Assembly (NCBI GenBank): GCA_033002965.1
Contig: JAURVB010006379.1
Span: 1 to 64,000 of the forward strand
DNA: 64,000 nucleotides
Direction of reading: 5' to 3'
Origin: Piper betle
Lineage: Eukaryota > Streptophyta > Magnoliopsida > Piperales > Piperaceae
Part shown: positions 11,977 to 60,800 of the stretch, piece after piece
How positions within the stretch are numbered: position 1 is the stretch's first letter
Layout: each line of letters begins with the position of its first letter
Notes under the pieces: generated by a model
Told to the model about the DNA's origin: nothing
Databases searched by the model: none
What the model saw: only the letters and a program-made list of their open reading frames with translations
Position numbers and translations under genes: made by a program

Positions 11977-12753
11977 CATAGTTGAAAAAATTGGAATCGG
12001 AATTAATTTTTGAGGGAGTCACTTAATCGGATCGAATCGGTTTAAATCGGTTTATTTGAATTGGTCTAAATCGGTCATATACAAAAATTTTAACTTAATC
12101 AAAATTGGTGGGTTATTAATTAAAGAACATATTATTTTAATATTATGATATGTATTATCTTTTATGGTATTTTTTATATTTTTTTGGATTTTTTAAAAAT
12201 TATTTAGAATTAGTTATTATTTTTTACTTGAGTCGAATTCGAATCAAGTTTTAATTACGAGAATGCCACGACTATTTCTTTATTTTTTTCCACTGTTCTC
12301 TCCCACACCTGTTGCCCTCCTTACCCCGCCACCGCCGCTGCCGCACCCCGCTAGCCCCGCCCCGTCCCTCCCCATCGTTGCCGCCTTGCTCCCCGCTCCC
12401 CTGCTGCCCCTGCTCTCCCCCCCCCAACCCCGCCCCGCCCCGCACTGCACTATCACCCCCTTCCACACCGACTTGGTTGTCCACCGCACACGTCCTGGTC
12501 GTCCTCCTACCGCCATGCACTGCCACCTCTTTCTGCCCCTCCAAAACCTCTCCCCCCCCCGCCGCCGCCCCCCCCCTTCGTTGCCCAGTTGCCACCCTCG
12601 CCACTCGCTGCTCACCACTTGCCGTTGCCATCCCGTCTATCACCATTGTTTGGAATTAGCTGATTTGGGCCGATTCACGGACTGATTCGTATGAAGACTA
12701 ATTTAGCTGGTTTTTTGAATTGGAAACCCTTCGATCCGATTTTTGTAACTCAG
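11977..12753 (-). mobile_element. hAT-like element, old copy of the CATAGTTG family
   Basis: It begins CATAGTTGAAAAAATTGG and follows, base block by base block, the reverse complement of the right half of the element at 35540-36428: TCGGTCATATA, a long AT stretch with TTATTTAGAATTA, then a TTGA..TCAA inverted motif and TTTTAATTACGAGAATGCCAC, then a C-rich island (12290-12650). The right end near TGTAACTCAG is too diverged for a clear inverted repeat, and the flanks CCTTATTT / CCCTCATC match only partly. Frames open through the C-rich island on both strands are compositional and not genes. Confidence 0.6.
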
Positions 12754-14218
12754 CCCTCATCATTACCATTTTCATAAACGTAAAAAAGTACAAATTAATG
12801 AATTCAACTAAATTTGTTTTTTTTCCCATGCTTTTCTTATTTGAAAAAAAGAAAAAAAAATCAAATTCAACTCAATTTCCCACCTCTTTGGCAAAATCAA
12901 ACTCAACCGACACAAAGTTCATGCGGTCCATCGCCCCAGCATTGGCTCGGAACTCAGTCGAGATGACGGCTTCGATTTGGCCGCGATAATGTGACAATTC
13001 GACTTCGATTTGGCGACAATGTTATCATGTTCAGCCGGTTATATGTTGAAAAAAATGAAATTGAGCCATTTTTTTTCAAACTCAAATGCACCGCTCTTGA
13101 CATTTGGACTGCATGTTTTGATCCCTGGACTATAGGAGCCTCATAAATCCAAAATTTTAAATTTTGGCAAAAGTCCACAATTACCTTGTCCATTTTCACT
13201 CAGGGTCACTTCTCTTATGTCTTCGCCTTTAAGAGTAGGCAACCGCTTTCAAAAAATGTCAAATCTCTCCGACTCAAATAAAACCTTAAGTAATGGTATA
13301 AAGTTGTAATTACACATAAAACAAATAAATATTGGGTGAAAAATTAAACTAGGACAATACATTCTGTTGAACTCAAATATACCAAATCAAGTGTCAACCT
13401 TATCAGTCTCTCATACTCTTTTTACTCTTCAACGAATCAATTTCAAACCAAGTTATTAGTAAACTCAAATAACCACTAATTCCAGCTAAATATAATTTAT
13501 AAAAGAAAATTTTAATATGTACTAGTCTGGATATTTTTATGTCAGTTTAAATTAATATTAACTATTGAATTACAAAGACGATATAGTAATTATTTTTCAA
13601 TTCAAAAAAATAATTAACCGTATAAAATATTAATGGATGGCTATATCTCCTTGAGTTAATATAACTATATAAGAACATTCGTACTAATTAAAATTAAGCA
13701 ATCTCATTTACAAAACCAGTAAAAATAACTTATTATGTAAATAAGAACTTTAATATAATTAAAAAGGAAAAAAATTATATGAGTTATATTTCATACAGCT
13801 TATATGAGCTGCACATTTAATTTAATTATTTTTTAGTGAATCCTATAAAATAATATTTATGTAGATTAACAGTAAAATACATAAATAAGAAGTTGATAAA
13901 ATGTTATTTTTTTAATATCATGAAACCCTTTTTTGGATTTTCAAAAGAACTACTAATTAATAGATATTTTAAAATTATTTTTTATTATAATTATTTTGAT
14001 AATTAAGATGAAAGAGTTAGAAATATCAATTTGAGTTCAAATTTTATAATTATGCTTATTACTTATTTACGTAGATTTTGAGTAGTAAGACTCGTTAAAT
14101 TAGTATAAATAAATAGTGTAGTTTATATAAGTTATATATAAAGTGTAGCTTATGTATATAAAATATATAATTCACACGAGCCCATCAACGGCAAGAATTT
14201 ACCCACAATCGGAGGCCC
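12754..14218. other. AT-rich stretch, upstream of PTAC3
   Basis: No gene, RNA or repeat border is evident. The last 60 bases before 14219 become GC-rich and are probably the 5' leader of the PTAC3 gene. Confidence 0.5.
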
Positions 14219-17300: not shown

Positions 17301-19696
17301 TTGACGTTCACAACTTCACATTGTCATGGGCCCATGGCCTTAAACTGTTAGAAGGGCCATGTCCTTGTGTCTTAAACACTTTCTTGAGCAGGTGTATTTG
17401 TGCTTTGAACCAGGAAGAATTGTTGAGCTGCTCGAAGCTTTGGAGGCAATGGCCAATGATAATCAGACTATTGCTCCAAGGGCTATGATACATAGCAGGA
17501 AATACCGAACACTAGTGAGCTCTTGGATTGAACCACTAGATGAGGAAGCTGAGCATGGATTTGAGATTGACTACATTGCAAGGTCGTCTTCTCATCAACA
17601 CTAAAGCATATATTTTGAAATATTTACATAAAGTTGCATGAGCAATGCTCTAGATATGTTTACACCATTTCCATTTCCTCTTAGTTATGTGTTTGCTTCT
17701 CACAGGTATATAGCAGAGGGAGGATTAACAGGTGAACGGAAACGGTGGGTTCCACGCCGAGGTAAAGCTCCCCTTGATCCTGATGCGGAAGGTTTTGCTT
17801 ATTCAAATCCAATGGAAACATCTTTCAAACAACGGTGTCTTGAAAACTGGAAGATACATCACCGAAAGCTTTTAAAGGTTTTGCAAAATGAGGGAATAGG
17901 AATATTAGGTAATGTTTCTCAAGCAGACCATATACGAGTAGAGGAGAGGTTGAAAAAAATCATTAAGGGTCCTGATCAGAATGCTCTCAAGCCAAAAGCT
18001 GCCAGTAAGATGCTAGTCTCTGAACTCAAGGAGGAACTAGAAGCTCAAGAGCTGCCGACAGATGGTACAAGACAAGTGCTTTACCAACGTGTACAAAAAG
18101 CCAGGAGGATAAATCGTTCTCGTGGTCGACCACTTTGGGTTCCTCCCGTTGAAGAGGAGGAGGAGGAGGTACGTTGGCTGATGATATATTGTTATAATTT
18201 TTTATAATAGCAAATGACTAAAATGATGACACAGGCTGTAGATAAAATGTTATGTTGTACCATTAGTTCCCAAACCAATGTAGGCATTTCAAAGTCATTC
18301 CCGATGTTGAGCTCTCTCATATATATGGCCGAGGAATGCTTAATTTCTGTTTTTCTGGAATTTGATTTTTTACTTAGGTTAGACAAATGATTACTGATGT
18401 TTTCATGGAAATTTTCTAGGATAAATCCCACCATTTTATACACGTTATCTTGGCTATATTTGTAAAAAATTTATGAACTCGGATGGTATCAGCATTAGTA
18501 ATTGATCCATTGAATGTTAGGAGTGTCTCTTCAGAGAGGGAACTATTCTAAAAAAAGGATACGATGATTGTTGTGTACTTGGTTCTCCTTTAAACACGTT
18601 TTGATTGATGATAAATGTTTGCGTTTTTTGTCAGATTGATGAAGAATTGGATGAACTTATTTCACGAATCAAGCTTGAAGAAGGAAATACTGAATTCTGG
18701 AAAAAAGATTTCTTGGAGAAGGGTTGATTGATGTGCCAGCTAAGCATGTTGCAGTAGAAGACAGTGTCAATTCAGAATTGCTGGACGATATTGGTGCAGA
18801 TGCATCAGAAGATTTGAAAGAAGGAGAAGATGACGAGGTTGATGAAGAGGAAGAGGAAGTTGAAGCTGAGCCAGAAGTTGAGGTTGAACAGAGTGATGGT
18901 CCAGTTGGAGAAAGGGCGGTCAAGGCCAAGGAAGTGGAATCCAAAAGCCTGTCCAAATGATAGGAGTACAGTTGCTCAAGGATACAGACCAAACAACCTC
19001 CACCTCAAGAAAATCAAGAAGAAGAGCTCGGGCATCAGTCGAGGTTGCACATTTATTTTCTTTGTCCTTTGGCACTGTAGAATAGATCTGATTTCTTGCT
19101 AATGGACCTTCAGGACGATGCTGATGATGACTGGTTTCCGGAGGATATACACGAGGCTTTAAAGGAGATGAGAAATAGAAAGATATTTGAAGTGTCAGAT
19201 ATGTACACTATTGCAGATGCATGGGGATGGACATGGGAGAGAGAAATCAAGAAGAGAGTGCCTCGAAAATGGTCTCAAGAATGGGAAGTTGACCTAGCTG
19301 TGAAAATAATGCAGAAGGTAACTCTTTGTTTTTCATCCTTATTTTTTAGTTCCCAAAATATTTTTTCATCATGATGTGTCTTTGTTTCTTTAATTTTCAT
19401 TAGCGTTCATTGTTGTCTTTTTTCTCATATATTGAATTGAAATGAGAGTAAATATGCAATCGCTGTAGGTGATTGAGTTGGGTGGAACTCCTACAATTGG
19501 AGACTGTGCCATGATACTACGTGCAGCTATACGGGCTCCATTGCCCTCAGCCTTTTTGAAGATTTTACAAACAACTCACAGTCTAGGTTATGTGTTTGGA
19601 AGGTAAAATCTGTTCGATTGGCAATCTGCTTTAAGGTTTTCCAGCCAATAATGCTGGAAAACCTATCAGCAAATTATTATCTTATTTTATTATCAG

Positions 19697-25470: not shown

Positions 25471-26187
25471 TGTAAAACTCGTAAACCAATCAGTTCGAAT
25501 CAAGTTAGTTTCATAACACATATGCTGAGTAGAGGCCAGCCGTGTGTTATAAGTCATGAAGGTCATGCATATCTGAACATATAATGATAATGTTAATAAT
25601 ATAATAAAAAAGAGTTATCATAATAAATTTATTTTTTTTATTTATAGTAGATAATAGAATTAGATTGAAGTTGTTTATCGTGTTAGGATACATTATTTAT
25701 TATTTTTGGGTCGGTTAGTAAGATTAAAGCATGTCATTCGAGTTAGGATTCGATTATTTTATTTTATAATATTTTATTTTTTTAAAAAATTATTTAATAT
25801 TATTTACTTGCAACTCTCCCAAGTTTTAATTAAAAAACTGCACCCTTTGTTCTCCCCTTGCCGCAACCCATGTACCCTCCCCCGATCACCACCGCCACCC
25901 TGCCCGACCACCCTCCACCCCATATCCCGCCCCATCACTGCCATGTTGCCCTGTTGCCCCCCTCCTCACCTCCCACCCCGCCCAGCCCCCTGAAGCCACC
26001 CTCACAAGGGGCTGGGCGGGGGTAGATGCGGCACCAAGTGAGGGCAAGGGGGCCGTGTTTGCTGGCGGGTAAATGCCGAGCTGGCAGGGGTGGGGGCCGG
26101 GGGAGCCGCGGACCCAGGTGAGGGCTGGGTGGTGGGGCAACAGCTGGCAGGGGGTGGAATGAATCCGAGCCGGCGGCTAAGATCACA

Positions 26188-26190
<3 letters not shown>
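25471..26190 (+). mobile_element. Decayed LTR, same family as the solo LTR at 29415
   Basis: It begins TGTAAAACTCG and follows the first 450 or so bases of the solo LTR at 29415 with many C-to-T type differences: GTCATGAAGGTCATGCATATCTGAACATATAATGATAA against ATGAGGGTCATGCGTACCCAAGTATATGATGATAA, then GTAGATAATAGAATTAG against GTGGATCGTAGAATTAG. The following GC-rich part (25850-26190) corresponds to the C-rich part of that LTR. The right end is cut by the (TA)n tract and the element at 26223. Excess transitions at CG sites suggest long-term methylation. Confidence 0.6.

Positions 26191-26222
<32 letters not shown>
26191..26222. repeat. (TA)n tract, left border of the inverted-end element
   Basis: Thirty-two bases of uninterrupted TA directly abut the left inverted repeat at 26223. 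A matching tract abuts the right end at 28832. Confidence 0.9.
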
Positions 26223-26225
<3 letters not shown>

Positions 26226-26864
26226 TCTCACTATGCTGCGCTGCCGTGTTTTGGCAGCGCAGGCAGCGTTTTTGTTTTTGGGCCGTTGGATCGAAATCCA
26301 ACGGCCCAAAATAAAATTCCGTTTTCCCCCTCCCCTCCCTGTTTCTCTTCCGGATTCCGCCCCTCGCCGGATTCCGCCGCGTCCTGCCGGATTCCGCTGC
26401 TGCCCGGCCCAGCCCGGCACCCCCAACCCCGTCCCGCCCTCGGCCCCGGCCCTGCCCGCAGCCACCCACCGCCCTCGCCTGCCGCCGCATGATTCGATCT
26501 CGGTTCCGCTTTGTTCCCCCCGGCCGCCACCATCCGCCCCAGCCCCCGCCCGCAGCCGCGGCCCCCCGCCCACCGCGTTTCCCCCTCACCACTCCCCCTG
26601 CCCGGGCCAGCCGCGGCCCCCTCCCTCGCCCGGCGCCGCGGCGCACCCCCCGCCCCTGCCAGCAGAAGCATCGCCCCCATCCCCACCCGCAGACGCGTCG
26701 CCCCCGTCCCCGCCCGCAGGCGCGGCCCTCCCCCACGCCGCGGCCCCCAGCCCCCGCGGGCGACGCGACGACAGTGTTGCCAGCGAACGGCCGGCGGCGA
26801 GGTGGCCGGAGGCGACGTCGCCGGCGGTGGGGTGGCGCGGCGAGAGAGAGCGGGGGGAACACGG

Positions 26865-27235
26865 GAGGGTAAAATCGTAATAAAAACTTTACTCGGTCCT
26901 GACTCGTGTTAATATTACGAAATAAATTTAAAAAATAAATTTTTTTATAATAAATACTTGATTCGATCTCGCACGAGATCGAGTCAATATTATGAAATAA
27001 ATAAAAAAAATAAATTTTTTTATAATAAATACTTGATTCGATCTCGCACGAGATCGATTCAATATTACGAAATAAATTTAAAAAATTAAAATAATTTTGT
27101 AATAAAAACTTTATTCCGTCCCACACGAGACCGGCGCCGTACATTTCCCACCAGGCCCATCCAGCCCCGAGGCGGTGACATTGTTGGCCAGCGGGCTGCC
27201 TGCCGCAAGGTCGCCGGCAGGGGGTGGCGCGCCAA
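26865..27235. repeat. Internal direct repeat, copy 1
   Basis: This block, containing ACTTGATTCGATCTCGCACG, GAGATCGAGTCAATATTA, CCCATCCAGCCCCGAGGCGG, TGACATTGTTGGCC and GCAAGGTCGCCGGCAGGGGG, recurs at 27560-27890 with few differences. Within each copy the palindromic word GATTCGATCTCGCACGAGAT is itself present twice, about 80 bases apart. Confidence 0.8.
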
Positions 27236-27559
27236 AAAAATGAGGAAGAAATAGGGGAGAGTATTTTGGTAATAAAAATTTTACTTAATCGGACTCGAGT
27301 TAAAATAATTTATTACGGAATTATTTTATTTTTTAAAATTTATTTTGTAATAAAAATTTATTCAGTAATAAAGTTATTTTGTAATAAAAACTTGACTCGG
27401 TCCCGCACATGATTCGATCTCGCACCCAATCCCTATTGTGGACCGTTGGATCTAATCCAACGGTCCACAATCAACCCACCCCATCCCTCCCCCTCCCCCC
27501 CCACTTTCAGCCTCCCGTCACCGCCCCTGCCAGCCGCCGTCGGCCCCTGCCCGCCGCCA

Positions 27560-27890
27560 TTACGAAATAAATAAATAAATAAAAAAATTTTATAATAAAT
27601 ACTTGATTCGATCTCGCACGAGATCGAGTCAATATTACGAAATAAATAAAAAAATAAAATTTTTTATAATAAATATTTGATTCGATCTCGCACGAGATCG
27701 ATTCAATATTATGAAATAAATTTAAAAAATAAAATAATTTTGTAATAAAAACTTTATTCGGTCCCACACGAAACTGGGGCCGCACATTTCCCAACAAGCC
27801 CATCCAGCCCCGAGGCGGCGACATTGTTGGCCAACGCGCTGCTGGCGGCAAGGTCGCCGGCAGGGGGTGGCACGAACTCGCCGGCAGGGG
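27560..27890. repeat. Internal direct repeat, copy 2
   Basis: Second copy of the block at 26865-27235, same orientation, about 650 bases away. It continues into GGGGGTGGCGCGGCGAGAGA and GGGGGGAACACGGGAGGGTA, words also found at 26826-26870 just before copy 1. Confidence 0.8.
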
Positions 27891-28319
27891 GTGGCGCGGC
27901 GAGAGAGAGCGGGGGGAACACGGGAGGGTAAAATTGTAATAAAAATTTTACTTAATCGGAAATAGGGGAGAGTATTTTGGTAATAGAAATAGGGGCAGGG
28001 TGTGGGTGGCGGCAGGGAGGTGGTCGGCAAGCAGCGGCGTCAGCGGGGAGCGAATCAAATTTTTATTTTAGATTATTTTATTTTAAAATTTTATTTTATA
28101 AAATTAACTTGAGAGTCAGGAGCAAGTCAAGTTTTTATTTTATTATATTTTATTTTTAAAATTTATTTCGTAAATTTGACTCGAGTTAGGAGCGAGTCAA
28201 ATTTTTATTACGAAAATGCCATTGCTCCTTCTTTCCCGGTGTTTTGTGGCGCCACCGCCGGCGGTGAAGCAGGTGACACCGGCGAGGAGGTGGCCAGTGC
28301 AGCAGACGGCGGGGAGGAG

Positions 28320-28720
28320 CTTGGTCGACGGGCGGGGCGGCGGCGAGGGTGGGGGCGAAACGGGCGGCCGGGGAGGGTGGCGAAAACAGGGCAGGGGCGG
28401 GCGGGGCCGCGGCGGGGGTGGGGCGAAACAGGCGGCGGGGGGGGCGGGGAACCGGGCAGGGGGCGGGCGGGGGCGAGGCGGCGGAGGGGGCAGGGGAAAC
28501 AGGGGCGGTGGGGGGGACGGCTACGGGCAGGGGGTGGGCGGGGGCGAGGCGGCGGAGGGGGCAGGGGAAACAGGGGGGAAGGCTGCGGGCGGGGGACGCG
28601 GCGGCGGACGGGGCGGGGGGTGGGGGCAGGGCTGCGGGCGGGGGCGCGGCGGCAGACGGGGCGGCGGTGGCGGGCGGGGCGGCGGAATCCGGCAACGCCC
28701 TGGGCAGGAGAAAACGTGGG
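28320..28720. repeat. G-rich tandem repeat with G-quadruplex potential
   Basis: The plus strand is strongly G-rich with dense runs of three to eight G. A unit containing GGGCGGGGGCGAGGCGGCGG and GGGGCAGGGGAAACAGGGG is repeated with a period of about 73 bases near 28456 and 28529. The opposite arm of the same element (26330-26760) is C-rich on the plus strand. Confidence 0.75.
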
Positions 28721-28826
28721 GAGGGGGGAAAAACAAAGGATGGATTTGGACCGTTGGATTTTGATCCAACGGTCCAAATCCAAAACGCTGCCTGCGCTAC
28801 CAAAACACGGCAGCGCAGCACAGTGG

Positions 28827-28831
<5 letters not shown>

Positions 28832-28880
<49 letters not shown>
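28832..28880. repeat. (TA)n tract, right border of the inverted-end element
   Basis: Forty-eight bases of uninterrupted TA begin directly after the right inverted repeat. Confidence 0.9.
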
Positions 28881-28883
<3 letters not shown>

Positions 28884-29414
28884 CCAGAAATATCAATGAA
28901 ATTATCCAGCCTGATTGAATAATTGGTACTCAAAAAGTAATAATGAAAGTTTAACATACGGAGGTGAGTACCATATCTCGCATTATATTATATATACACC
29001 CGAGTTGCACGACTCGGCTGATTCCGAGTGGAATTGGCCGATTTAAATCGGATCGGCGTCGTGCCGATCCGATTTCGGCCGAATCGACCTCGAAATCGGG
29101 CGATTTCGCCCGATTCCTACCCATTTAACTCGGAATCAGAATCGGCCGATTTAAATTGGAATCGGTTTTTTAGTAAATTACTAAAATACCATAGGTATGA
29201 TTTTTATTAAATTATTTAAGCATGGGTAAAATTGTAATTTAGATTTTAAAAACCTAAAATCATACCCCTCGCCCCGCTTCCGCCGTCGCTCGCACCGCCG
29301 CCCTCCGCCGGCTTCCGCCGTCCGACCTCAGCTCTGCTCGACCTCGCTGTGGAGCGCAAAGGCGAGGAGTTCGGGTGGAATCGGTGGCCACCCTCCGCCG
29401 CGTTCCGCCGTCCG

Positions 29415-32369
29415 TGTAAAACCCATGATTCGAGTTAGGGTTTTATATTCAGAACCGGTCGGGTCGACCGTTATTTTTCGAGTTGAGTCAGTTTCAGGAC
29501 ACGTGTACCGAGCCGACGCCGGTCGCGTGTATGAGCTATGAGGGTCATGCGTACCCAAGTATATGATGATAACGTCATGAACACAGCAGAACAGAATGAG
29601 TTATCAGAATATATGAGAGTATGCCAGTGATTTTTTTATTTATTTTTATATACAGTGGATCGTAGAATTAGTTTTAGGCCGTTTACCGCATTAGGACGCG
29701 TTACGGGCATTTTGGGTGGGTTGATAGTTTTAGAGCATATAATTATGATGTTTCGGTGTTATTGATTTTACAGGATTTTTCCCGATTTTTAGGGATTTTT
29801 TTAGGATTTAATACGACCTGGTTATTATACTTGACTCGAGCCGGAGACGAGTCAAGTATTATTTACGAAATTGCCACCCAACCCTTCTTCTCCACCCCCG
29901 ACCTTTCTCCCCCACGCCCAAACCGTCACCATCGCGCCGCCCCTGTTCGCGCGCCACCGCCGCCACGGCCGACGCCGCCTGGCCGCCGTTCGACGCCGCC
30001 CAGCCCAGCCACGGCGTCGCCATGCTGCCCCGACCAGGTCCGGCCCCAATCGGGCCGCCGTGACGCCGGATTTGCCGTGCATAGCGCCGCGGCTAACTTT
30101 TGGGCGCGTCGTTGATTTCGCCGCCGGCGACCGTCGCCGCCACGATCAGGTGGCCGCCTCAGCACCAGCGACCACCCAGTGACCCTCCCCGACCGGAACG
30201 GAGGCCAACGCCGCCCATCCCGGCCGGATCTAGCCACCGATTGCGCCGCGGCTCTGTTTTGCCGTTTTCCGGCGAGCCGCCGCCTCCATTGGTCACGCTG
30301 ATGTCATAGATGAGTCGGGCTCGCCGAGCCGGTTCCAATGGTACCCTACATGACCCCTATCCAGCTAGTAGATACCACCGGCAATTTTCGCCGGAAAACC
30401 GCCGGAAGTCGCCGGAAAACCGCCGGAAAATCGAAAATTCTGGAATTCGCCGGAATTCACCGGATCTTCCGCAAGGCTCACCCAGTGGAGCCCGATCGAG
30501 CTTCGGACGCCGATGAGCGCCGAATTTGAGCTCCGAGACGCGCGACGGAACCCTAGCCGTCGCCGATTGCCGACTACGTGAGGTATAATTACCTCCGATT
30601 GAGTTATTTAAAATTGATTATGATTGTTAGTATACCATGCTAGAATTGAATAATTGTCATGATAAATATATGAGTATGAGTGTAGTGATGATTGCATGAT
30701 GCAATTAATTGAGAATGAATAGTGAATGATCTAATGAGGTAGATCGAGTTGAGCATGCTAATCGAGTAATGTAGCTTAGGAAAATATAATAAAATTGGTA
30801 GGAATAGGATGAGTTAGAATTATTTTCATATTTATGATTATTGATTGTGATTGATATTTATTGAGTTTGATGCATCATGTAGTTAGCGGGCGTTAGTATT
30901 TAGTTTTGATGTGTAGGTACGGAATAGGAGCTCGCCGCCTAGGCGCGATGCCACGCTTGGAGCTTCTACCAGGTCCGTTTAGGACTCGTCTTGTTTTACG
31001 CTCTTCCATTGTATGTTTATTTTATTATTGCAGGGCGGGTTAAGTGGCGTTTTATTGGATCCCACTTAACTCGGGCCATTTAATCGAATATTTTCCGGAT
31101 TAATAACCCCTCGAGGATGAGATCCCTCGAGGATGATTTCGAAAACAAGATCCACCACAAGTTGCCTTCGGGCCTATTATATGAATCCCTTCCCAGGCCT
31201 ATATATATAGTTTTATCGAGTTTTCAGTGAGACGAGAGATGGAGAAACCGACTGCACGTACCATGCAGAGGATGCCGTGACAGTCAAAGCGGGCTCTGGA
31301 TTAGTGCCAGCGGACTGTTCCATTCCCGAGGGATCCTGACAACTCCGCGTTTGAGTTCCTCACACCCGGAGAACGTGGAGGTTTACGGGTACTGTTTAGT
31401 ACAGCGCATGTCCGGACTTGTGGTTCAAAGGGTACTAAAGGCGACTGCCTGAGAGTACTCGGCCTTCGTGCTCAAGGCCAGGAGAAATATGGAGGTACGG
31501 AGAGGGCTTAGGATAAAGTTTCACGAGAAGTACTGAAAAAGAAGTGCTGAGAGTAGCACAGTACCAGCAGCAGAATAAGTTCGGGATGCTACCGGGTCTG
31601 CAGCCCAGTGGCTCCTCAGTAGTGCCCTTCAGAGTGTTCTCGAGGAAGTATGATGATTTTCTTTCAGATGAGAGTTTGCTCTCATAGCCAGTTTGTTATA
31701 GTTATTTTATTTTCCGGACCAGTAACGCTTGTTACTGACGTTTTTCTTATATATATGTAGGTGATAAGCACGAGATGGATGGAGCCAGCTTGGACGGAGG
31801 AGCAATGAGGTCTTCTGCACACACACATGTTAGGTTTTTGAATGTTTAATTTTGTGTTATTATGTTATTATATTGTGAATGACTATGATTAAATGTTTGA
31901 GCATGATGATATGATATGAATGAAATGTTAAGACACGATAACGAATGAGAATATGATCAGAGTGCGCAGCGAATGTGTGGGTTGAAACCCCAGCTTCAGA
32001 ATGAATTCATAATATATTAGATTTTGTGTGAATGAAATCATGGATGCATGTGTATATATTTATACATGTATATATATTATTTTGACAGGGTGGACCCTAA
32101 TTGCACTTTTAGGGGAAACTCTGTCCGTTATATTTCAAAATTTTTATTAATTTTTATCGTGATTGTGTTGGTGTGAAATTTGATTTGCATGTCATTCATG
32201 TAGTACCATGTTAGGGTTTTGTGTATTCATCCATGCATTGCGAGTTGTATCTTCATCTTAAGACGCCGAGATTGGATCCGCATGAGTTAGGTTCGGGTTA
32301 GCCGACCTAACCGGGGCCTGTAACATGCCGGTTCGGTTCACGAGCGTGAACCGGATTTGGGGTGTTACA
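29415..32369 (+). mobile_element. Solo LTR, gypsy-type, with perfect 5-bp target duplication
   Basis: It starts TGTAAAACCC and ends GGGTGTTACA, and GTCCG flanks it on both sides (29410-29414 and 32370-32374). TG..CA ends with a 5-bp duplication define an LTR. At 2,955 bp with no primer-binding site, polypurine tract or pol genes, it is a solo LTR left by recombination between two LTRs. The length and the long GC-rich part at 29880-30560 suggest a Tekay/Del-type chromovirus LTR; this family guess is not proven. The perfect duplication implies a younger insertion than the decayed relative at 25471. Frames open at 29756-30529 are not genes. Confidence 0.88.
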
Positions 32370-32559
32370 GTCCGACCTCAGCTCCACCCGACCTTCCGAC
32401 CACGCCACCGCCCTCGCAACTCCGCCTCCGACAGGTGGCCGGCCGACAGCACTGCGGAGTGTGCTGTGGAGCGCAAAGGCGAGGAGTTCGGGTGGAATCG
32501 GCGGCCGAACGAAAATTTGGGTAAATTTGGATTTTTTTATTGAAATTGAATGTTGTGAT

Positions 32560-32970
32560 GTGCGAATTGTTATCTATGATGTGCTAATTGATTAATATGA
32601 TGTGCAAATTGTGATGTCCAAATTGAAATTTTGTGCGGATTTGGGATTTTTTTATTGCTGATTTGGGATTTCGTTGACTTAATTGTGTGTGCTGCAAATT
32701 GTGATGTGCGAATATGTGCTATGTGTAAATTGTGATGTGCAAATTGTGATGTGCGAATATAGCTTGGAAGTCTTGAAAATTTGCTTGGTAGTGGTCCGAT
32801 TGATGATGAATTTTTTGGTGTGCTACTGTTGATATGCTAGGGTTTTTAGGAACTGTAATTGACAGTTTTTGCAGTTAATTGTCTTTGCCTTGGTGTTCAG
32901 TTTGTTGTCTTTGTGAATGGGATACCATTTGATTGAAAATTTGCTTGGTAGTGGTCGGATTGATGGTAGT
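32560..32970. repeat. Short direct repeats inside the hAT-like element
   Basis: The word AATTGTGATGTGC recurs several times between 32620 and 32760, and GAAAATTTGCTTGGTAGTGG occurs near 32775 and again near 32936, both followed by TC.GATTGATG. Confidence 0.75.
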
Positions 32971-33058
32971 TGTAGATTCCGGAGTTCTCTTTGGCTGCAA
33001 ATTTAACTACAGAGTCATTTGAAGTTATCAAAATTTCGAGATATCAGTCACAGGGAAG

Positions 33059-33565
33059 ATGGATTTTGGATGGGAATATGGCACACCACTTGATGCATCT
33101 AAGAAGCAAGTCATCTGTAACTTTTACGGAAAAACCATAAGTGGAGGGGTATATCGCTTCAAGCAACATATTGCTGGACTCAAAGGAAATGTTGCTGCTT
33201 GTAAGAAAGTTCCTGAAGCAGATGCACAAAAAATAAAAGATTATTTCAAAGGTGTGGAAAAGGCCAAGAAAGAAAAACAAAGGATTAGAGAAGAAATAAG
33301 GTCATATGGTTTGAATGACTCAGATATGGAAGAGATGGAAGTTCGGGAGCAAAGTGTTGGGTGCTCTAAGTCAACTACGTCTGATGGTTTGTCTTTGCCT
33401 CCTGAACCTGAGGGACTTCATATGAGTGGGAGTTCTATGCCTCCTTTTACACAGGGGTCTCGTGTTGATGCAGATGATAGTTCTACTCTTCCCATTGGTG
33501 ATAATAATTCAGACTCCGAAGATGCTTTAGATGATGAATTAGATGATTTAGTAATCACTATGTAA
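33059..33565 (+). CDS. BED-type zinc-finger ORF, remnant of a hAT transposase
   Basis: The 168-aa frame begins MDFGWEYGTPLDASKKQVIC and continues CNFYGKTISGGVYRFKQHIAG and NVAACKKVP, the N-terminal BED-like DNA-binding region found in plant hAT transposases, where it recognises the element ends. The usual second zinc ligand of CNFC is Tyr here. After about residue 60 come a Lys/Glu-rich stretch, then a Ser/Pro-rich part, then an acidic tail (SDSEDALDDELDDLV). The catalytic core and the hATC dimerisation domain are absent. It is a 5' coding remnant of an internally deleted element, or a small protein that could still bind the ends. Its place inside matching terminal repeats supports the transposon origin. 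Confidence 0.7.
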   Translation: MDFGWEYGTPLDASKKQVICNFYGKTISGGVYRFKQHIAGLKGNVAACKKVPEADAQKIKDYFKGVEKAKKEKQRIREEIRSYGLNDSDMEEMEVREQSVGCSKSTTSDGLSLPPEPEGLHMSGSSMPPFTQGSRVDADDSSTLPIGDNNSDSEDALDDELDDLVITM

Positions 33566-34124
33566 AATTGTGCTGAAGATTCATTTTTTGGACTTGTATT
33601 AATGTCTTGTTGTTATTATTTGATAGAACATAGATGATGATATATGAACATTGTGTATATACTTATGACATTGTGGTATTCTGATGATAAATTGTGATGC
33701 TCTTTTAGGTATGTAATTATATGAAATTGTGTTCATTACATAAAGAGTATGTTCTTCAGGTTTGCTCTTATTTGAATTACATAAAGAGTATGTTCTTTCA
33801 GGTATGTTCTTATTTGTTCTTTCAGGTATGACTCTACCGTTGTATTGTCATAATTACATACCTTTATGATTGTTGTATAAATACTTGAATTTGTGTATTT
33901 ATGTTGAGAAATTATATAATTATGTATTTCAGGTATTTCTGTTATGAGTTGGCAAATTTTTGTATATGACCGATTTGGACCGATTCAGGCCGATTCAACT
34001 GAACCGATTCCTGGCCGATTCAGACCGATTCCGATTCCAACTCCTTGGAAAACCAATTCCGATTCCGATTCCAACTCCTTGGAAAACCAATTCCGATTCC
34101 GATTCATGCAACCATGATACACAC

Positions 34125-35531
34125 GCAAAGGACTATATCATAATAACTGGTAGAGAGATCAGAGAATCGCTAAGAAGACTAAATCAGAGGGAATAAATAT
34201 AAAGACTAGTATAAAACATCTCTTCAAGAGGATCAAGAGTTTGAATCCCATTAATATCAATTTCTAAAAAGAAAATAATAGTAAAATTATCTTTTATGGT
34301 ATTACGTCACAAGTTTAAACCCTACTAACTTTAATTTCTAATTTCCTATTAATAAGAGTTTATCTCATTGTCTTAAAAAAGTATAATTTAAAAAATTAAA
34401 TAATTATAATTCATCTTTTCTTTCAAATAAAATATATCTTTAAAGTCAATCACATTTTATATTTAATATATTAAATTATTTCAATCTATTTTATTATTCA
34501 ATAAAATTTATATATTAAATTTAAATTTATCATGCATAAGTTGTGCATGACGCAACATCTATATGTATATATAGAAGAGTAGATGTTGTCTAAGCTCTAC
34601 AATTAAAAGGAACATATTAGACTAATCTAACAATTTTATGATTGAAGTGATTCTAAATATAAATAATTAATAAAGAAGGATTGATGTATAAGGATTTCTA
34701 ATTCATATTAGTACGTGTTCTTCCATAGATATATACATATTAAACCACATACCGAGATTTCAATGTAATAATAATAATATATAGACCACCCTTAGATTGT
34801 TTAGAAAATTTTAGAGGTAAAGCAATATTCAATGGTAGAGATTGCATCGACAAATGAACGTTGCTTTAATATTTTTTAAATGAGAAAGAGTAAAATAATA
34901 AAAATACTTGAGTTTTTATTAAATATGTAAATTTTAAAATAAATATTTAATGAGTATATTCCTAAGATGTCATTATTATACTATAACAAAGGAAAACAAT
35001 CAAATTTATTTGTCAAGTGTCTTTCATTACTTTATTGTCTTTTATTAATTCATCTAAATTTCTAAGTATCTCTTATTATTATTTTACAAATTCACCCTCT
35101 CTTTTTAGAATGCCTATATACCTGATTTCAGTTGTTGATGTAATTTAATAGTCTATATTGTTTTTCCTAAAAAAATTACCTAAATTCATTAAAAAATTAA
35201 AATAATCGTGAGTCCTTACATGTATATATATATATATTTTAATTTAGGTTTTTATTCTTTTTAGTTATTTGAAGGAGGTTAAATGTTGTTTGAGTTGAAT
35301 TAGATAACTTATTTACTTTAAGATCTTTATTATTGTTAATAGTTATTTATAAACACATGATGAGTTAAATAAAACTTTTATACATTTTTGTGTTCATTAT
35401 AAAAATAAAATTTACCAAATCTAGTTACAGTTGAATTAGATTTTTCAATATATATCACAATTAATTAATATATTCATGATAAGAATGGATAAAAATTACA
35501 AAATTATACTAATAAATATAATGACTTCCTA
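34125..35531. other. AT-rich stretch between two hAT-like elements
   Basis: No gene or element border was found. Microsatellite-like TATATG and TATATA runs occur near 34560 and 35223. Confidence 0.5.
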
Positions 35532-35539
35532 GGTTGTAT

Positions 35540-36428
35540 CATAGTTGAAAAAATTGGCCGATTCCGTGCGGAATCGGCCGATTTAAATCGGATCGGCGTC
35601 GCGCCGATCCGATTTCGGGCCGACTCGGTCGGCCCCGAATCGGGTCGTGAATCGGCCCGTTTCGGCCGATTCCGACCGATTTAAATCGGAATCGGAATCG
35701 GCCGATTTAAATCGGAATCGGTTTTTTAGGAAATTACCAAAATACCCTAGGTATAATTTTTATTAAATTATTTAAGCATGGGCAAAATGGTAATTTGGAT
35801 TTAAAAACCCCGATTCCGCCGCCGCGTTCGCTCCGCCGCCCTCCGCCGCGCTTCCGCCCGATTCCGCCGCGATTCCGCCCGATTCCGCCGCGATTCGGCC
35901 GCCCGACGCTCCGCCCGACCTTCCGACCACCCCACCGCCGTCCGACGCTGCGCCCGTTCCGAACTCACCTTCCGCCGTCCGACGCTTCCGCCGCGATTCC
36001 CCGCGCTTCCGCCGGCCGACGGTTCGTCCGACCGGGCTGCCGACATCGCCGCCGCGAGGCTCGCCGCCGACCGGGCCGCCGGCGGCGGCGGGGGGTAGAG
36101 AGGGGAGGGTGGCATTCTCGTAATTAAAAGTTGACTCGAGTCTAACCCGAGTCAAAAATAATAATTAATTCTAAATAATTTTAAAAAATCTTAAAAAATA
36201 TTTAAAAAATATCATAAACTATAATACATAGAATAATATAAAAATAACATCAATACCCAATTTTAATATATTTATATTGTAAATTGTCAAATTATTATAT
36301 ATGACCGATTAAATTAATTTGGACCGATTCAACTGAACCGATTCTTGGCCGATTCAGACCGATTCCGATTCCGATTCCGATTCCATGGAAAACCGATTCC
36401 GATTCCGATTCCGATTTATGCAACCATG
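35540..36428 (+). mobile_element. 889-bp non-autonomous hAT-like element with perfect 8-bp target duplication
   Basis: The ends are CATAGTTG and, inverted, CATGGTTG. The octamer GGTTGTAT flanks the element on both sides (35532-35539 and 36429-36436). Short CA-starting inverted ends plus an 8-bp duplication define hAT transposons. Subterminal regions are packed with the word CCGATT / AATCGG, more than twenty times in all, probably the transposase-binding sites. The middle is an AT-rich arm, a GC-rich island (35810-36100) and the TTGACTCGAG..CGAGTCAA motif. There is no ORF for a transposase; frames in the island are compositional. The perfect duplication marks a fairly recent insertion. Confidence 0.88.
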
Positions 36429-37466: not shown

Positions 37467-41390
<3,924 letters not shown>

Positions 41391-44139: not shown

Positions 44140-47100
44140 CATACCCAACCAGCACGCCTAGCCCCCTCCCGGCCTCCACCAGCACGCCTAGCCCCCTCCC
44201 CGCCCTCCTCACCACTCCCGCTCCGCCCCCCACCCCCACCCCCACCCCCACCCCCACTCCACCCTCCCAGCCCCCAACTCCCTCCCCACCCCATGCGCCC
44301 ATGGCTTTTCCCCAAAATAAATCCTCATAGGCCAACCTTTTCTCCTACCAACACACATCTTCCTCTTTTCCAACCATTGTTATTCCCAAAACCATTCTTG
44401 ACAAAGAGAACGAACGATGGAAAAATACTCTTTGGCTACGTGAAGCGAAAACGCCTCTACTTTGTATGCTTTAAAACTATGTTGAAAAAGTTATTGAAGC
44501 TTTCTGGAACCTTTGAAATGTAATCTCTAGCAGATGGTTTCTTCTTATTCAAGTTCTCTTCTAAGGATTGTGAAAATATTCTTCACCCATCATGGTCAGT
44601 GGGGGACCGACCCTTTATTCTTCAAAAATGGCATTCGGGTACTTAGCCAACTCGAGAGTTACTAAAGTCAATTCAAATATGGATCAAATTTTCTGAGCTT
44701 CTAATCCAATATTTTTGAGATGAAAGTCTATCAATGTTGGCTAGTATTTTGGGGATCCCATTATTTATTGATAGAGCACCCGTGAATAGAACTCAGCTTA
44801 TTTTTGCTCGAGTATATGTCGAAATTGACTATACTTTCATATTTCCTACATCCATTATGTTAATAAGGGATGATGGCTCTTCTTTTAACCAAAAGGTAGA
44901 ATATAAATAGAAACCTAAGATTTGCTCTAAATGTAACTCTTTTAATCATGCGGACTCGTGTTGCCCCACACGACAAGAATGACAAGCTATTCAGGCTTCA
45001 AATGTTCCTCAAAATAATCTCCTTTCATTGTATACTTCTTTGTATACTGGCTGTTACACTTCAAACAGTGCACAAAACAAAGACAAACAGGTTCCTTAAT
45101 GCTCCCTCTCAGGCCGATCCCCCACTTGCTTGAGTTCAGACTGTCTCTCCAAACCCACAATGTGACGTTTAGATTTTCATTAAACTAAGTATCCCCTGCA
45201 AGAAACTGCAGCTCCACTCTTTGGTCACAAAAGTCAATATAGGTGGAATATAGTGGCACATAGCAAATCAGGCCGAAATCATAAAATTTCTCAAGCGTTG
45301 AAAGTCTATTAAAAACTCTTAGAAAGTCGACTAGAGTTTCAAAATCCAAGGTGGTTGCTAAAAACAAAGGGGAGCTTGAAAACTCCCCCATTCTTCATGA
45401 CTAGTTTGGCAGCTTAGAATGTTCACGATCTCTCCTGTTGAGCAAAGAAGTTGGATGTCTTCAATCTAACAATTCAAGAAAATATTTCCCTCTTTGGTTT
45501 ATATGAGACAAAAATTAAAAGCAAAAATTTTCGTAAGGTCCAAAATCGGTTTTATTAGAGGATGGCAATTTGAACATAATTATTTTTCAAACCCCTCCGG
45601 TCTCATTCTAGTCTTATGGAACCGCCCCTACTTTGTGTGGTTTCAAGCCATTTTACAAAGTTAAGGAAACTTCATGGAACCTTTGAAATGCAATATTAGC
45701 TGATGGTTTCTTCTTATTCAATTTCTCTTTTGAGGAAGATTGTGAGAATATTCTTCACTCGTCATGGTCAATGGGGGGCCGACCTTATTCTTCGAAAATG
45801 GCATCCGGGTACTCGGCCAACTCGAGAGTTACTTACTAAAGTCAGTTCCAATATAGGTCAAATTTCATAAGCTTCCCATTCAATATTTTGGAGATAAAAG
45901 TCTATCAATGCTGGCTAGTACTTTGAGGATACCACAATTTGCCGATAAAGCAATCGTGAAAAGAACTGAGCTTGCTTTCGCCGAAGTATATGTGGAAATT
46001 AACTATACTTTCATATTTCGTACATCCATTATGTTGATGAGGGATGATGACTCCTCTTTCAACCAAAAGGTAGATTACAAATGGAAGTCTAAGATTTGCT
46101 TTAAATGTAACTGTTTTGATCATGCGAACTCGTCTTGCCCTACACGACAAGAATAAAAAGTTGTTCAGACTTCAAATATTCCTCAAAATAATCTCCCTTC
46201 ATTACATACTTCTGTTAATCGGCTGTTACACTTCAAACAGTGAGCAAATTAAAAACAGCACGTTCCTACATTAGCTCCTGCATAGGCCAACACCCCACTT
46301 GTTTGAGTTCAAACTGTCCCTCCAAACCTACAATGTGACACGCAAATTTTCATTAAACCAAGTATCCCGCACAAGGGATTGCGGCTCCTCTCTTTGATCA
46401 CAAAAGTCAAAATGGGTGGAATATGGTGGCACATAGTAAATCAGCCTGAAACCATAAAATTTTTCAAATGTTGAAAGTTTACTCAAAAACCCCTAAAAAA
46501 GTCAACTCGAGTTTCAAAATCCAAGGTGGTTGATGAAAACAAGGAGGAGCTTGGGAACTCCCCCTTTCTTTATGATTAGTTTAGGAGCTTGAAAAACTCG
46601 CGGTCTCTCCCGTCGAGCAAAGAGGTTGGATGTCTATAATCTAGCAATTCAAGAAAATATTTCTATCTTTGCTTTATGTGAGACAAAAATTAAAGCCAAA
46701 AATTTTAAAAAGCTCTAAAGAGGTTTTATTAGAGGATGGCAAATTGAGCATAACTATTCTTTAGACCCCTCTGGTCGCATTCTAGTCTTATGGAACCCTG
46801 ATATTTTTAAAGTCTCAAAGCTACAAGAGAGTGATTTGTCGAGTGTTGAACCTTGGGGATGGCTTTGAATTTTGCTTCATTATGATTTATGCTTCACACT
46901 TATACCAACAGAAACAATAGTTATGGAAAAATCTTTCATGTGTCAAACTCTCTATTTAGCTTCCTTGGATCCTCATGGGTGACTTCAACTGTATTAGAAG
47001 TAATAATGAGCGTTTGGGTGGTGTTGATATTCCTTATTGGCATTTTAAATAATTTAATAATTTCATCTTTTCAATGGATCTCATTGATATTCCTTGTAAT

Positions 47101-57800: not shown

Positions 57801-60800
57801 GTGAAGAAAAGCTAGTAAAGGATGCTGCAAATTTTTCATAAAAGAGAATAATCATTTGCGTCACAACCTGTGATTTTTGAGACAACTCTTTAGGAGATGG
57901 ACTTACACCCCTTTTATTGTGCTCGGCGAAATAACTGCTAAGCATGAGGAAATTTTAGGTGCATGGCATAGGCTACTTCGTCCACTGGGCATGTTGAACT
58001 AGTCACTCAGCTCAACTTTGGTTAGGTGAAAAGTGATATAAGCAAGAGACCAATGCCTGGAGAACTTCTCTCGTTCTATGAGGCCAGCCTTGAAGTCATG
58101 AAAACCATAAGTTCTCCCATCCATCCCCACTCTGCAGTGCAGTTATCAAAGTAGCCCTTTTCTTCCCCTAGCTTAGTAGTTAAATTACACAAGCTATTTG
58201 CTTTTTTTTCAAGAAATGAACATAGCGTATTGCTTTGACTTCAGAAAAGCCAAGTAGAAAATAGAGTTAAAACCTCCCATTTTTTCTCTACAAGTGGATG
58301 GCACAACGACCTATATGTGCTGTTTATAGATGTTCCCAAAATAGCGTTCCCAATCATGCTCAAGTCAAGTACTATGTACTCTTTATAGATGATTACAGCC
58401 AAATGTCTTGGATCTATTTAATGAAAGAAAGAAGTGAAGTTTTCTCTAAATTCATGTCTTTTATTAATGAAATACAAGTTTAGTATTTAGCTCATCTCAA
58501 AGTGTTTCAATCTGATAATGCCCTAGAATACACTTCTTCACAATTCAAACACTATTTTAGATCTCAAGGCATTTTACGTGAGACTTCACGTGCTTATACC
58601 CCTCAACAAAATGGAATTGCTGAAAGGAAATGTAGACATCTTTGAGAAGTAACTTTAAGTCTTATGATACAAATGTCAATTCCCAAACATCACTGGCCTG
58701 AGGGACTCCTCACACCTTGCTATCTAATTAATTGCAAGACTAGTGGATCTTTAAAAAACAAAATACCCATCCAAGTATTGTTTCCTGATAAAGCACTATT
58801 CCCATTCAAACCTAAAATCTTTGGTTGTGTTTGTTTTATCCATATTCTTCCATTTCGAAAAGTTAAAATTTCAGCTAAATCCCTCTAGTGTGTTTTTATA
58901 GGATATTTAAGACTTAAGAAAGGTTATCTATGTTATAATCCTTCTCTTAAGAAAACATTTATCACAATGGATGTAACATCTTTGAGGATGTTCCTCTTTA
59001 TTCTCCGTCTAATGCTCCCATGTTAGCTGTTCCTAAGCCTTCCTCTCACACTCTTTCCATTTCTATTGTTGATCTTCCATCCACCACTAGTCCTCCTAAG
59101 TATGCTGCTCCACCAATTGTGTATACTAGGAGACCTAAGGAAGTTCCTTCCACTCATTTACCTGCAGCCCCCACAACCATATTTGCTGATCCTCCTTTAG
59201 TGTATATCCTCAGGAACAAAGAAGACTTCATCACTCCCATAAACCAATCTCCTTCTACACTTCCTGACATAGATACGGAACCTAGTTCTTCATCAGCTCT
59301 TATACAAAACTTGACAGGTGTTACTGTTCCTAAGGATCACAATGAGGCAATGACTGATGATAGATGGGTGCAGGCAATGAATGATGAAACTCTTGCTTCA
59401 CAACGAAATCGCACATGGACCTTGGTTGATTTACCTACAGGTAAAAAGGTGGTTGGATGTCGATGGTATTTACAGTCAAGGTTAAAGCAGATGGATCAAT
59501 TGACAGGTTTAAGGCACGTCTAGTACCTAAAGGGTATAGTCAAACTCTGGGCCTTGATTACCATGATACCTTCTCATCAGTGGCTAAAATGAATTCTGTT
59601 AAGAGTTTATTCTCTTTAGCTGCTAACTTCAACTGGACTCTTCATCAACTTGATGTCACTAATGCTTTTCTTTATGGAGATTTACAGGAAGCAATTTACG
59701 TGCAGCAATTGCTGAGGGGGAGTCTAATAAGGGTTACCTTCTTAAAATATCAATCTACGGACTCAAACAGTCTCCTAAAGTATCGTTTGAAAAGTTCAGT
59801 AATACGCTTGTTGATTTTGGATTCACAAGGTGTGTTTCAGATTAGTCTGTCTTTGTTAAACATTCGGGAAGGGGTTGTGTCATTCTCGTGGTTTATGTTG
59901 ATGATATGGTCATCTCAGGTAGTGACATCATTGGTATCCAAGAAACCAAGGACTAGTTAAAATCCAGACTGCACATTAAGGATTTGGATCAGCTACACTA
60001 CTTTCTTGGAATTGAAGTTATGAGGACACAACTGGGTATTTATCTAACTCACAAGAAATATGTAACTGATCTGCTACAGGAGACAGGGATTATTCATGCA
60101 AAAGCTGTAGAATCCCCTCTCGAGTCTGGACTCAAATTTATGCCAGATGAAGGAGAAGTGTTTGAGGATGCTAGTAGATATAGACGCCTGGTTGGTAAAC
60201 TGATGCAGAGCATCCTCATGAGTCATTGCCTTTGTCTTCCAATGATAGAGATGAAGATCTTTTCACCAAATATGATTATCCTCAATTTGATATTGGGAGT
60301 AAGGAGAAGAACAAGGGAAAAGGGAAGGCGTAGATCAAATCTTTGTGGGACTTTCAGTGCTGGAATTCTTTATTTAGAGCCGCTATTTTATCAGTCATGT
60401 GTTTGCTTATTAGTCGTGTCTATTAGTCATGTGTTAGTTTAGTTGGTTTGCTAGTTGTTCTATTATTATTGGTGGTTTGGTCTAGTTAGTTATTGTTTAG
60501 ATCTGATTTGATATTATTTGTTAGGGATGAACTTGTCTATATTAGTTTTCATATTCTGGGAGTATTGCAGATTATGGACAGATGAATAAAAATCCAGTTT
60601 TTTTTTAAATTTTTGCTATAGTTTTCTATATTTTCTTGTATCTATTAGATGAACTAGGCCAACAGCAGATTTGATCAAGGAACAAGGAAGGCTAGGATTG
60701 GCGTAAGTCCTATTGTTTGCAGGTTTATCTTGTTTGATTATCCTCCCAAGACATTAACTTGCACCATAAACTAATTTATTTGATAGTGACAAGACCTGAT

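What the first reader, a model, noticed from the sequence alone, without database searches (positions are those of the whole stretch)
25806..36156. One short module shared by an LTR, a hAT family and a TA-flanked element
An inverted word pair of the TTGACTCG..CGAGTCAA type followed by about 10 bases and ATTACGAAAATGCCA (or close variants), leading into a C-rich island, occurs at 12227-12270, 26867-26911 (minus), 28176-28221, 29830-29879 (LTR), 36109-36156 (minus) and, decayed, 25806-25845. These elements belong to different transposition classes. Possible explanations are capture of one host fragment, exchange of regulatory sequence between elements, or convergence on a promoter-like module.
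Basis: seen in the sequence. Interest (0 to 1): 0.75.

Follow-up and report, generated by a model that had tools for sequence, protein, structure and literature searches.

The report
Retrotransposon fragment inside DNA transposons
A short palindrome-plus-phrase sequence really does recur in three unrelated kinds of plant jumping gene; in two of them it belongs to a longer piece that most likely passed from a retrotransposon end into a DNA transposon, and whether it works as a promoter is untested.

Summary
The module is real and far beyond chance: a 25-nt inverted pair TTGACTCG-N9-CGAGTCAA, six bases, then ATTACGARAWTGCC. Four copies match 26-30 of 30 fixed positions and a fifth 23; 200 simulated windows reached at most 22.

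LTR and hAT share more than the module: about 115 nt upstream is colinear and homologous (29715-29877 = 12107-12269, 115/165 columns). A larger hAT copy, itself deleted inside, lacks the piece and has a solo LTR nested in it. The hAT copies most likely carry an inverted LTR fragment left by nesting plus deletion, or by capture. The TA element shares the 46-bp core (39/46 with hAT36); upstream it resembles only the decayed LTR copy.

Promoter function is conceivable (AT-to-GC boundary, W-box-like arms) but untested, and the pyrimidine stretch is not distinctive. The host genome could not be searched (11 requests unanswered). A good example of sequence sharing between transposon classes, not a new kind of system.

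The parts
29415..32369 (+). solo LTR (2955 bp, TGTAAAACCC...GGGTGTTACA) nested in a hAT element, 5-bp TSD GTCCG on both sides
   Evidence: termini and TSD; sequence
29831..29876 (+). module core in the LTR: perfect palindrome arms (12 bp with flanks), 9-nt loop, spacer, TTTACGAAATTGCC
29715..29877 (+). LTR stretch homologous to the inner part of the hAT derivatives
   Evidence: (115/165 columns with hAT12)
25494..25899 (+). decayed copy of the same LTR family; module remnant at 25808-25841 without the palindrome
35540..36428 (+). 889-bp hAT deletion derivative, 8-bp TSD GGTTGTAT on both sides
   Evidence: similarity to the larger hAT
36091..36260 (-). LTR-like piece inside the hAT derivative, inverted relative to the hAT; core 36110-36155
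   Evidence: 122/189 columns with LTR29; 29/30
11977..12756 (-). second hAT-derived element, reversed, right end approximate, TSD not recognisable
12107..12269 (+). LTR-like piece in the second hAT-derived element; core 12228-12268 (palindrome span 5 nt shorter)
29000..34116 (+). larger hAT copy, interrupted by the solo LTR, apparently without catalytic region; imperfect 8-bp TSD (ATATACAC / ATACACAC, 7 of 8); its own sequence does not hold the module
   Evidence: ORF 33059-33562
26222..28831 (.). TA-flanked long-TIR element between (TA)16 and (TA)24.5, with GC-rich arms and an AT-rich centre of hairpin repeats
28176..28221 (+). module core, right arm of the TA element (30/30, equals the template)
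26867..26912 (-). module core, left arm of the TA element, degraded palindrome (23/30)
26904..27130 (.). 75-bp tandem units with 30-nt palindromes related to the module palindrome, in the centre of the TA element; a second array lies at 27559-27771

Best explanation
The module is an old component of one long-LTR retrotransposon family, about 415 bp inside the LTR where AT-rich DNA gives way to a GC-rich stretch. A fragment of that LTR (at least about 163 bp: AT-rich part, palindrome and phrase) became part of a non-autonomous hAT lineage in inverted orientation, most likely because an LTR nested in a hAT was trimmed by internal deletion, or because the hAT acquired it during repair or re-mobilisation; the hAT then carried it to new sites. 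A Mutator-like (TA)n-targeting element carries the same 46-bp core, probably from a relative of the decayed LTR copy, and has multiplied related hairpins internally. The core may act, or have acted, as a proximal promoter element with W-box-like arms. Shown: module, geometry, LTR-hAT homology beyond the core, absence from the larger hAT, an LTR of this family nested in this hAT family. Inferred: direction of transfer, route, source for the TA element, promoter role.
For: Core similarity: 15 of 15 pairs of copies have z 3.0-17.3 against dinucleotide shuffles; 0-2 of 800 shuffles reach the score in 14 pairs, 12 of 800 in LTR25-TA26. LTR-hAT upstream zone, core excluded, against real AT-rich segments from elsewhere in the window: LTR29-hAT12 72 (background max 38, and 51 in the reverse test, 1500 each), LTR25-hAT12 80 (max 64), LTR29-hAT36 45 (max 38), LTR25-hAT36 62 (max 59; 1000 each). 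Colinear 165-column alignment ending with the phrase. The larger hAT matches the derivative at its 5' region (29003-29341 and, past the LTR, 32372-32447) and 3' end (33934-34072); its sequence just inside the 3' end is no more like the LTR-like zone than background (652-1000 of 1000 as high). Solo LTR with a perfect TSD inside that hAT. TA element: upstream of the left arm resembles the decayed LTR copy (65, background max 56, 0 of 1000), of the right arm 5 of 1000 and 1 of 1000 in an earlier draw. TTGAC(T/C) is the W-box core according to PMC6671987 (passages).
Against: The larger hAT seems to be a deletion derivative too, so its lack of the piece does not prove that the hAT ancestor lacked it. 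TA upstream is not similar to hAT or LTR29 (85-347 of 1000 as high over six pairs; 156-360 over three pairs). The decayed LTR copy has AT-rich short repeats there, which could inflate its match to the TA element. LTR29-hAT36 and LTR25-hAT36 upstream were not clear against shuffles (38 and 65 of 800). Islands downstream align poorly: of 15 pairs only hAT36 with the two TA arms reach 0-1 of 800, the two LTR copies 7 of 800. LTR29-hAT12 identity is flat, with no peak on the core (0.56-0.80). Compensatory change in the palindrome is weak (3 pairs, 38 of 500 shuffles). LTR25 has lost the palindrome. TATA-like sites in the LTR lie 1.4 kb and more downstream of the module (31200, 31748, 32069). A pyrimidine-rich stretch of 0.77 or more follows 5 of 5 AT-to-GC steps at module copies but also 8 of 17 other steps.
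Confidence: 0.6

Rival explanations
1. Each element took the module from a fourth source, such as a host promoter or an unseen repeat family, and the LTR is a recipient like the others.
For: The phrase half (TTAC.AWWWTRCC) also occurs without the palindrome in the hAT family's own 5' region: 8 sites in all against 0.21 expected, 4 of them there. The TA element shares little beyond the core with hAT and LTR29.
Against: Two LTR copies that are 64% identical over 221 columns just upstream hold the piece in the same place, so it is old in the LTR. No site outside these elements scores above 18/30. Host-gene signal: 0 of 5 island ORFs match Pfam, a light test.
Confidence: 0.2
2. Convergence: the three families independently evolved the same promoter-like module under selection for one transcription factor.
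For: The same AT-to-GC context in all six copies; the palindrome is formed by partly different letters in LTR29 and TA28.
Against: 28-30 of 30 positions with identical 9-nt loop length and 6-nt spacer in LTR29, hAT36 and TA28; LTR-hAT homology goes about 115 nt beyond the module; covariation weak.
Confidence: 0.05
3. The shared piece is a small MITE of its own, about 170 bp, with GGGTGG-type ends, that inserted separately into the LTR and hAT ancestors.
For: The LTR-hAT shared stretch begins near GGGTGGGTT and ends at GCCACCC, a 6-bp inverted match (read by eye); similarity between the two hAT copies stops at the phrase.
Against: No target-site duplication seen at the edges (by eye). The islands also align poorly between two copies of one LTR family (7 of 800), so the sharp right edge may only reflect fast turnover of islands. 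The TA copy lacks such ends.
Confidence: 0.05
4. Ordinary nesting with no functional meaning: LTR remnants sit in hAT and TA elements because all cluster in repeat-rich DNA, and the module is a passive passenger.
For: A solo LTR of this family is nested in a hAT of this family in this window; the decayed LTR copy ends about 300 bases left of the TA element; pyrimidine stretch and covariation are not distinctive.
Against: Two hAT copies 24 kb apart carry the same piece in the same internal place, so it moved with the hAT; identity is 0.72-0.96 over the module in the hAT pair and the TA arms. It does not contradict the transfer reading, only the functional part.
Confidence: 0.45

Closest known systems
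Nested LTR retrotransposons and internally deleted non-autonomous hAT elements
   Same: TSD-flanked solo LTR inside a hAT; short hAT copies that keep the ends
   Different: The short copies hold a piece of LTR-like sequence, inverted, which seems to have been carried along with them
Pack-TYPE elements, including Pack-hAT (PMC8903248, passages seen)
   Same: Non-autonomous DNA transposons of hAT and other superfamilies that pick up foreign DNA
   Different: The cargo here is retrotransposon DNA of regulatory type, not coding DNA; capture of a gene was not seen
MuTAnT / SaTar / Micron / Ac-mMITE elements: Mutator-like elements in (TA)n microsatellites (PMC4486113, part 1 of 4 read; PMC5907723 and PMC8449440, passages)
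   Same: (TA)n on both sides, inverted-repeat ends, foldback-type structure
   Different: About 2.6 kb with GC-rich arms; no related transposase or 9-10-bp TSD could be tested, so membership is not shown
EPCOT3, a LINE-derived WRKY33 enhancer (PMC6671987, passages)
   Same: A transposon carrying a W-box that can act as regulatory DNA
   Different: There binding was shown by ChIP; here there is only a sequence match, and three element classes are involved

Membership tests
LTR retrotransposon (solo LTR) | TG...CA ends and a 5-bp target-site duplication | tested here: met
   TGTAAAACCC...GGGTGTTACA, GTCCG on both sides
LTR retrotransposon (solo LTR) | internal domain, primer-binding site, lineage | not testable with these tools
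   only a solo LTR and a decayed copy are in the window; the genome search did not complete
hAT superfamily | 8-bp target-site duplication | tested here: met
   35540-36428: GGTTGTAT twice; larger copy 7 of 8; none recognisable for the 12-kb copy
hAT superfamily | short terminal inverted repeats shared by copies | tested here: met
   CATAGTTG/CATGGTTG in hAT36; one end alike and the other degraded in the other two
hAT superfamily | BED-type transposase with hAT catalytic and dimerisation domain | tested here: inconclusive
   ORF 33059-33562 has a relative, P0001 (95% identity over 64% of the query), listed with PF02892, PF04937 and PF26664 (the names BED and DUF659 are recalled); the window ORF gave no Pfam match
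Mutator-like (TA)n-targeting element | (TA)n microsatellite on both sides | tested here: met
   (TA)16 at 26191-26222 and (TA)24.5 at 28832-28880
Mutator-like (TA)n-targeting element | long terminal inverted repeats | tested here: met
   91-nt outer arms 90% complementary, partly (TA)n; 871-column arms at 66%
Mutator-like (TA)n-targeting element | related MULE transposase, or copies with 9-10-bp TSD | not testable with these tools
   the genome search did not complete
Promoter with WRKY-bound W-boxes | W-box core TTGAC(T/C) | tested here: met
   both arms read TTGACT in three perfect copies; definition from PMC6671987
Promoter with WRKY-bound W-boxes | factor binding and transcription start | not testable with these tools
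   needs ChIP or DAP-seq and CAGE or RNA-seq

The most novel reading that the evidence does not exclude
The module is a portable promoter cassette: a 46-bp palindrome-plus-phrase unit that transposons of three superfamilies pass to one another and keep under selection because it lets each of them be transcribed by the same host factor, so that unrelated transposons share one expression programme.
Probability: 0.13. Interest if true: 0.75.

Novelty: new member of a known kind. Interest (0 to 1): 0.4.

Why it matters
It offers a worked case of retrotransposon DNA moving into a cut-and-paste DNA transposon, with the presumed first step (an LTR nested in a hAT) and the end product (short hAT copies with an LTR piece) in one 64-kb window. 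If the core proves to drive transcription in more than one class, it would show that unrelated transposons can come under one host control by sharing sequence rather than by convergence.

Tried and rejected
Nested insertion as a full explanation: rejected for the copies as they stand. The LTR in the hAT at 29415-32369 is opposite in orientation to the LTR-like piece in 35540-36428, and no LTR ends were seen around that piece; nesting followed by deletion remains the favoured route.

The LTR-like zone as the hAT's own sequence: a lax alignment of the larger hAT's 3' end runs on into that zone (186/285 columns), but the inner part alone scores no better than background, so this was rejected.

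A separate MITE: considered because of GGGTGG-like edges; no TSD seen.

Pyrimidine patch as a mark of transcription start: not distinctive in the control; I lowered the promoter odds from 0.35 to 0.3 for this, and the odds of the novel case from 0.15 to 0.13.

RNA family: 0 matches to Rfam at gathering thresholds in the whole window. Hairpin: strand folding beats shuffles in 7 of 8 tested copies or units (z -2.25 to -5.34) but not in the 26867 copy (z -0.66); covariation is weak on six aligned copies or units (LTR25 was not in that alignment).

Host-gene origin of the islands: 0 of 5 ORFs match Pfam at E 0.01; ORFs of the LTR29 and hAT36 islands were listed but not searched.

Literature: six full-text searches by words and two for the letters of the phrase and relatives. 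One search found 0 papers. One search found 47, of which 30 were listed; judged by titles and abstract starts, none concerns this module, and I opened none. Passages of PMC13317346 were read too; it has no occurrence of 'gap repair', 'nested' or 'hAT'. This is a small open-access search and does not show that the module is unpublished.

Background controls: the palindrome alone occurs in 19 viral-contig stretches, and in 38 strand readings the phrase is never nearer than 5 mismatches; arm plus phrase has 0 exact matches in viral contigs and in prokaryote genomes.

Recalled, from no call: that phrases like TTACCAAAATACCC are common in plant genomes; pyrimidine patches at plant transcription starts; gap repair as a source of deleted and chimeric DNA transposons.
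Full report
What the window is. It is nuclear DNA of a land plant: an exon at 17632-18207 matches PAP1/pTAC3 of solved plastid RNA polymerase structures (E 8.4e-87), two HSP60-type stretches lie at 38667-39197, and an RVT_2 reverse transcriptase fragment lies at 59445-59960. The species is not identified. The host genome could not be searched: the same request did not complete 11 times.

The observation. The module is a palindrome TTGACTCG-N9-CGAGTCAA, a 6-nt spacer and ATTACGARAWTGCC. On a fixed 30-position template the sites score 30 (template source), 29, 28, 26 and 23. The best score in 200 simulated windows is 22, reached once, and the best site outside the named elements scores 18. Three copies have exact 8-bp arms with exactly 9 nt between them; the 12228 copy is 5 nt shorter. 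With flanks, LTR29 and TA28 have perfect 12-bp arms, two of only three such structures with a 9-nt loop in the window. The sixth site (25806) has no palindrome left.

The elements. (a) A 2955-bp solo LTR, 29415-32369, with TSD GTCCG, and a decayed relative at 25494-25899 (282 of 469 columns), whose module remnant lies in the homologous place. (b) A hAT family: a larger copy 29000-34116 that holds the solo LTR and an ORF with a 95%-identical relative (over 64% of the query) listed with PF02892 and PF04937; an 889-bp derivative 35540-36428 with TSD GGTTGTAT; and a reversed relative at about 11977-12756. (c) A TA-flanked element, 26222-28831, whose two halves form one long inverted repeat (871 columns at 66%) with GC-rich arms and an AT-rich centre holding 75-bp tandem units with 30-nt palindromes. 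The copies at 26867 and 28176 are the two arms of this one element.

How they are related. The core is shared: 15 of 15 pairs exceed shuffles (z 3.0-17.3; weakest pair 12 of 800 shuffles). Identities over 46 nt are 39 for hAT36-TA28, 35 for hAT36-LTR29 and 35 for LTR29-TA28. Upstream, LTR and hAT stay colinear for about 115 nt: 29715-29877 against 12107-12269 gives 115 of 165 columns. The upstream part alone scores above all 1000-1500 real AT-rich segments drawn from elsewhere in the window in each of the four LTR-hAT pairs; against shuffles the two pairs with hAT36 were not clear (38 and 65 of 800). The TA element shows no upstream similarity to hAT or LTR29 (85-347 of 1000 as high over six pairs), but its arms resemble the decayed LTR copy (0 and 5 of 1000), with the caveat that this stretch of the decayed copy has AT-rich short repeats. 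Downstream islands align poorly: of 15 pairs only hAT36 with the two TA arms reach 0-1 of 800 shuffles, and the two LTR copies, which must share ancestry there, only 7 of 800.

Direction and route. The LTR family holds the piece in place in two old copies. The larger hAT matches the 889-bp derivative in its 5' region (29003-29341 and, past the LTR, 32372-32447) and at its 3' end (33934-34072); the sequence just inside that 3' end is not like the LTR-like zone (652-1000 of 1000 background segments as high). In the derivatives the LTR-like piece lies there, inverted. This makes LTR to hAT the simpler direction, with the reservation that the larger hAT seems to be a deletion derivative as well and could have lost the piece. 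The window also shows an LTR of this family nested in a hAT of this family, so nesting followed by internal deletion is a ready route; acquisition by neighbouring insertions and re-mobilisation, as proposed for Pack-TYPE elements (PMC8903248, passages), is an alternative. The nested LTR seen here has the opposite orientation and cannot be the direct source. These are inferences.

Possible function. All six copies sit where AT-rich DNA (8-29% GC over 100 nt) gives way to 61-82% GC, with 73-83% pyrimidine in the 30 nt after the phrase. A control weakens the last point: the best 30-nt pyrimidine fraction within 60 nt is 0.77-0.90 at the 5 listed steps that belong to module copies, but also 0.77 or more at 8 of 17 other steps. 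The arms contain TTGACT, a W-box core by the definition in PMC6671987. Between the two TA arms, identity is 0.76-0.96 over the module, mostly 0.36-0.76 in the GC-rich arms and 0.80-0.96 again at the ends; between the two hAT copies a plateau of 0.72-0.96 runs from about -86 to +41, so the module is not a separate peak there, against 0.44-0.84 farther out. This may mean constraint, but gene conversion among repeats or faster decay of CpG-rich arms would give the same picture. Against it: identity is flat in LTR29-hAT12 (0.56-0.80), compensatory change is weak (38 of 500 shuffles), and TATA-like sites in the LTR lie at 31200 and beyond. I put a promoter role at about 0.3.

The phrase on its own. 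TTAC.AWWWTRCC occurs 8 times against 0.21 expected, and 4 of the 8 are in the hAT family's own 5' region without the palindrome. So the phrase can occur apart from the palindrome, which leaves room for a source other than the LTR.

Verdict. The sharing is real, and for LTR and hAT it is best read as transfer of one fragment (about 0.9 for common descent). For the TA element a common source is likely (about 0.7; raised from 0.65) but rests mainly on 46 bp. Overall this is a new example of a known kind: transposons picking up pieces of other transposons.

Noticed in passing
window 26276-26311, 27435-27471, 28741-28782: A second palindrome, of the type GGACCGTTGGAT..ATCCAACGGTCC, occurs three times in the TA element, twice at the inner edge of its terminal repeats and once in the centre.
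   Followed up: no
window 29178, 29224, 35734, 35780: The hAT family's 5' region holds an inward-facing pair of the phrase (in the 35-kb copy AAATTACCAAAATACCC ... GGGCAAAATGGTAATTT) without the palindrome.
   Followed up: partly
window 44659-45623 and 45833-46797: Tandem duplication of about 1 kb at a spacing of 1174-1175 bases; three matching blocks are 81-84% identical.
   Followed up: no
window 33059-33562: The ORF in the larger hAT seems to lack a catalytic region; relatives P0001 and P0003 match different parts of it, so it looks like an internal deletion that fused the ends of a transposase gene (by eye).
   Followed up: partly
window 30570-30915: The LTR's GC-rich stretch ends in a donor-like GTGAGGTATAA followed by an AT-rich tract and an acceptor-like TGTGTAG; this may be an intron in the LTR transcript (read by eye).
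   Followed up: no
window 17632-18207: Exon of a pTAC3/PAP1 gene, a plastid RNA polymerase-associated protein.
   Followed up: no
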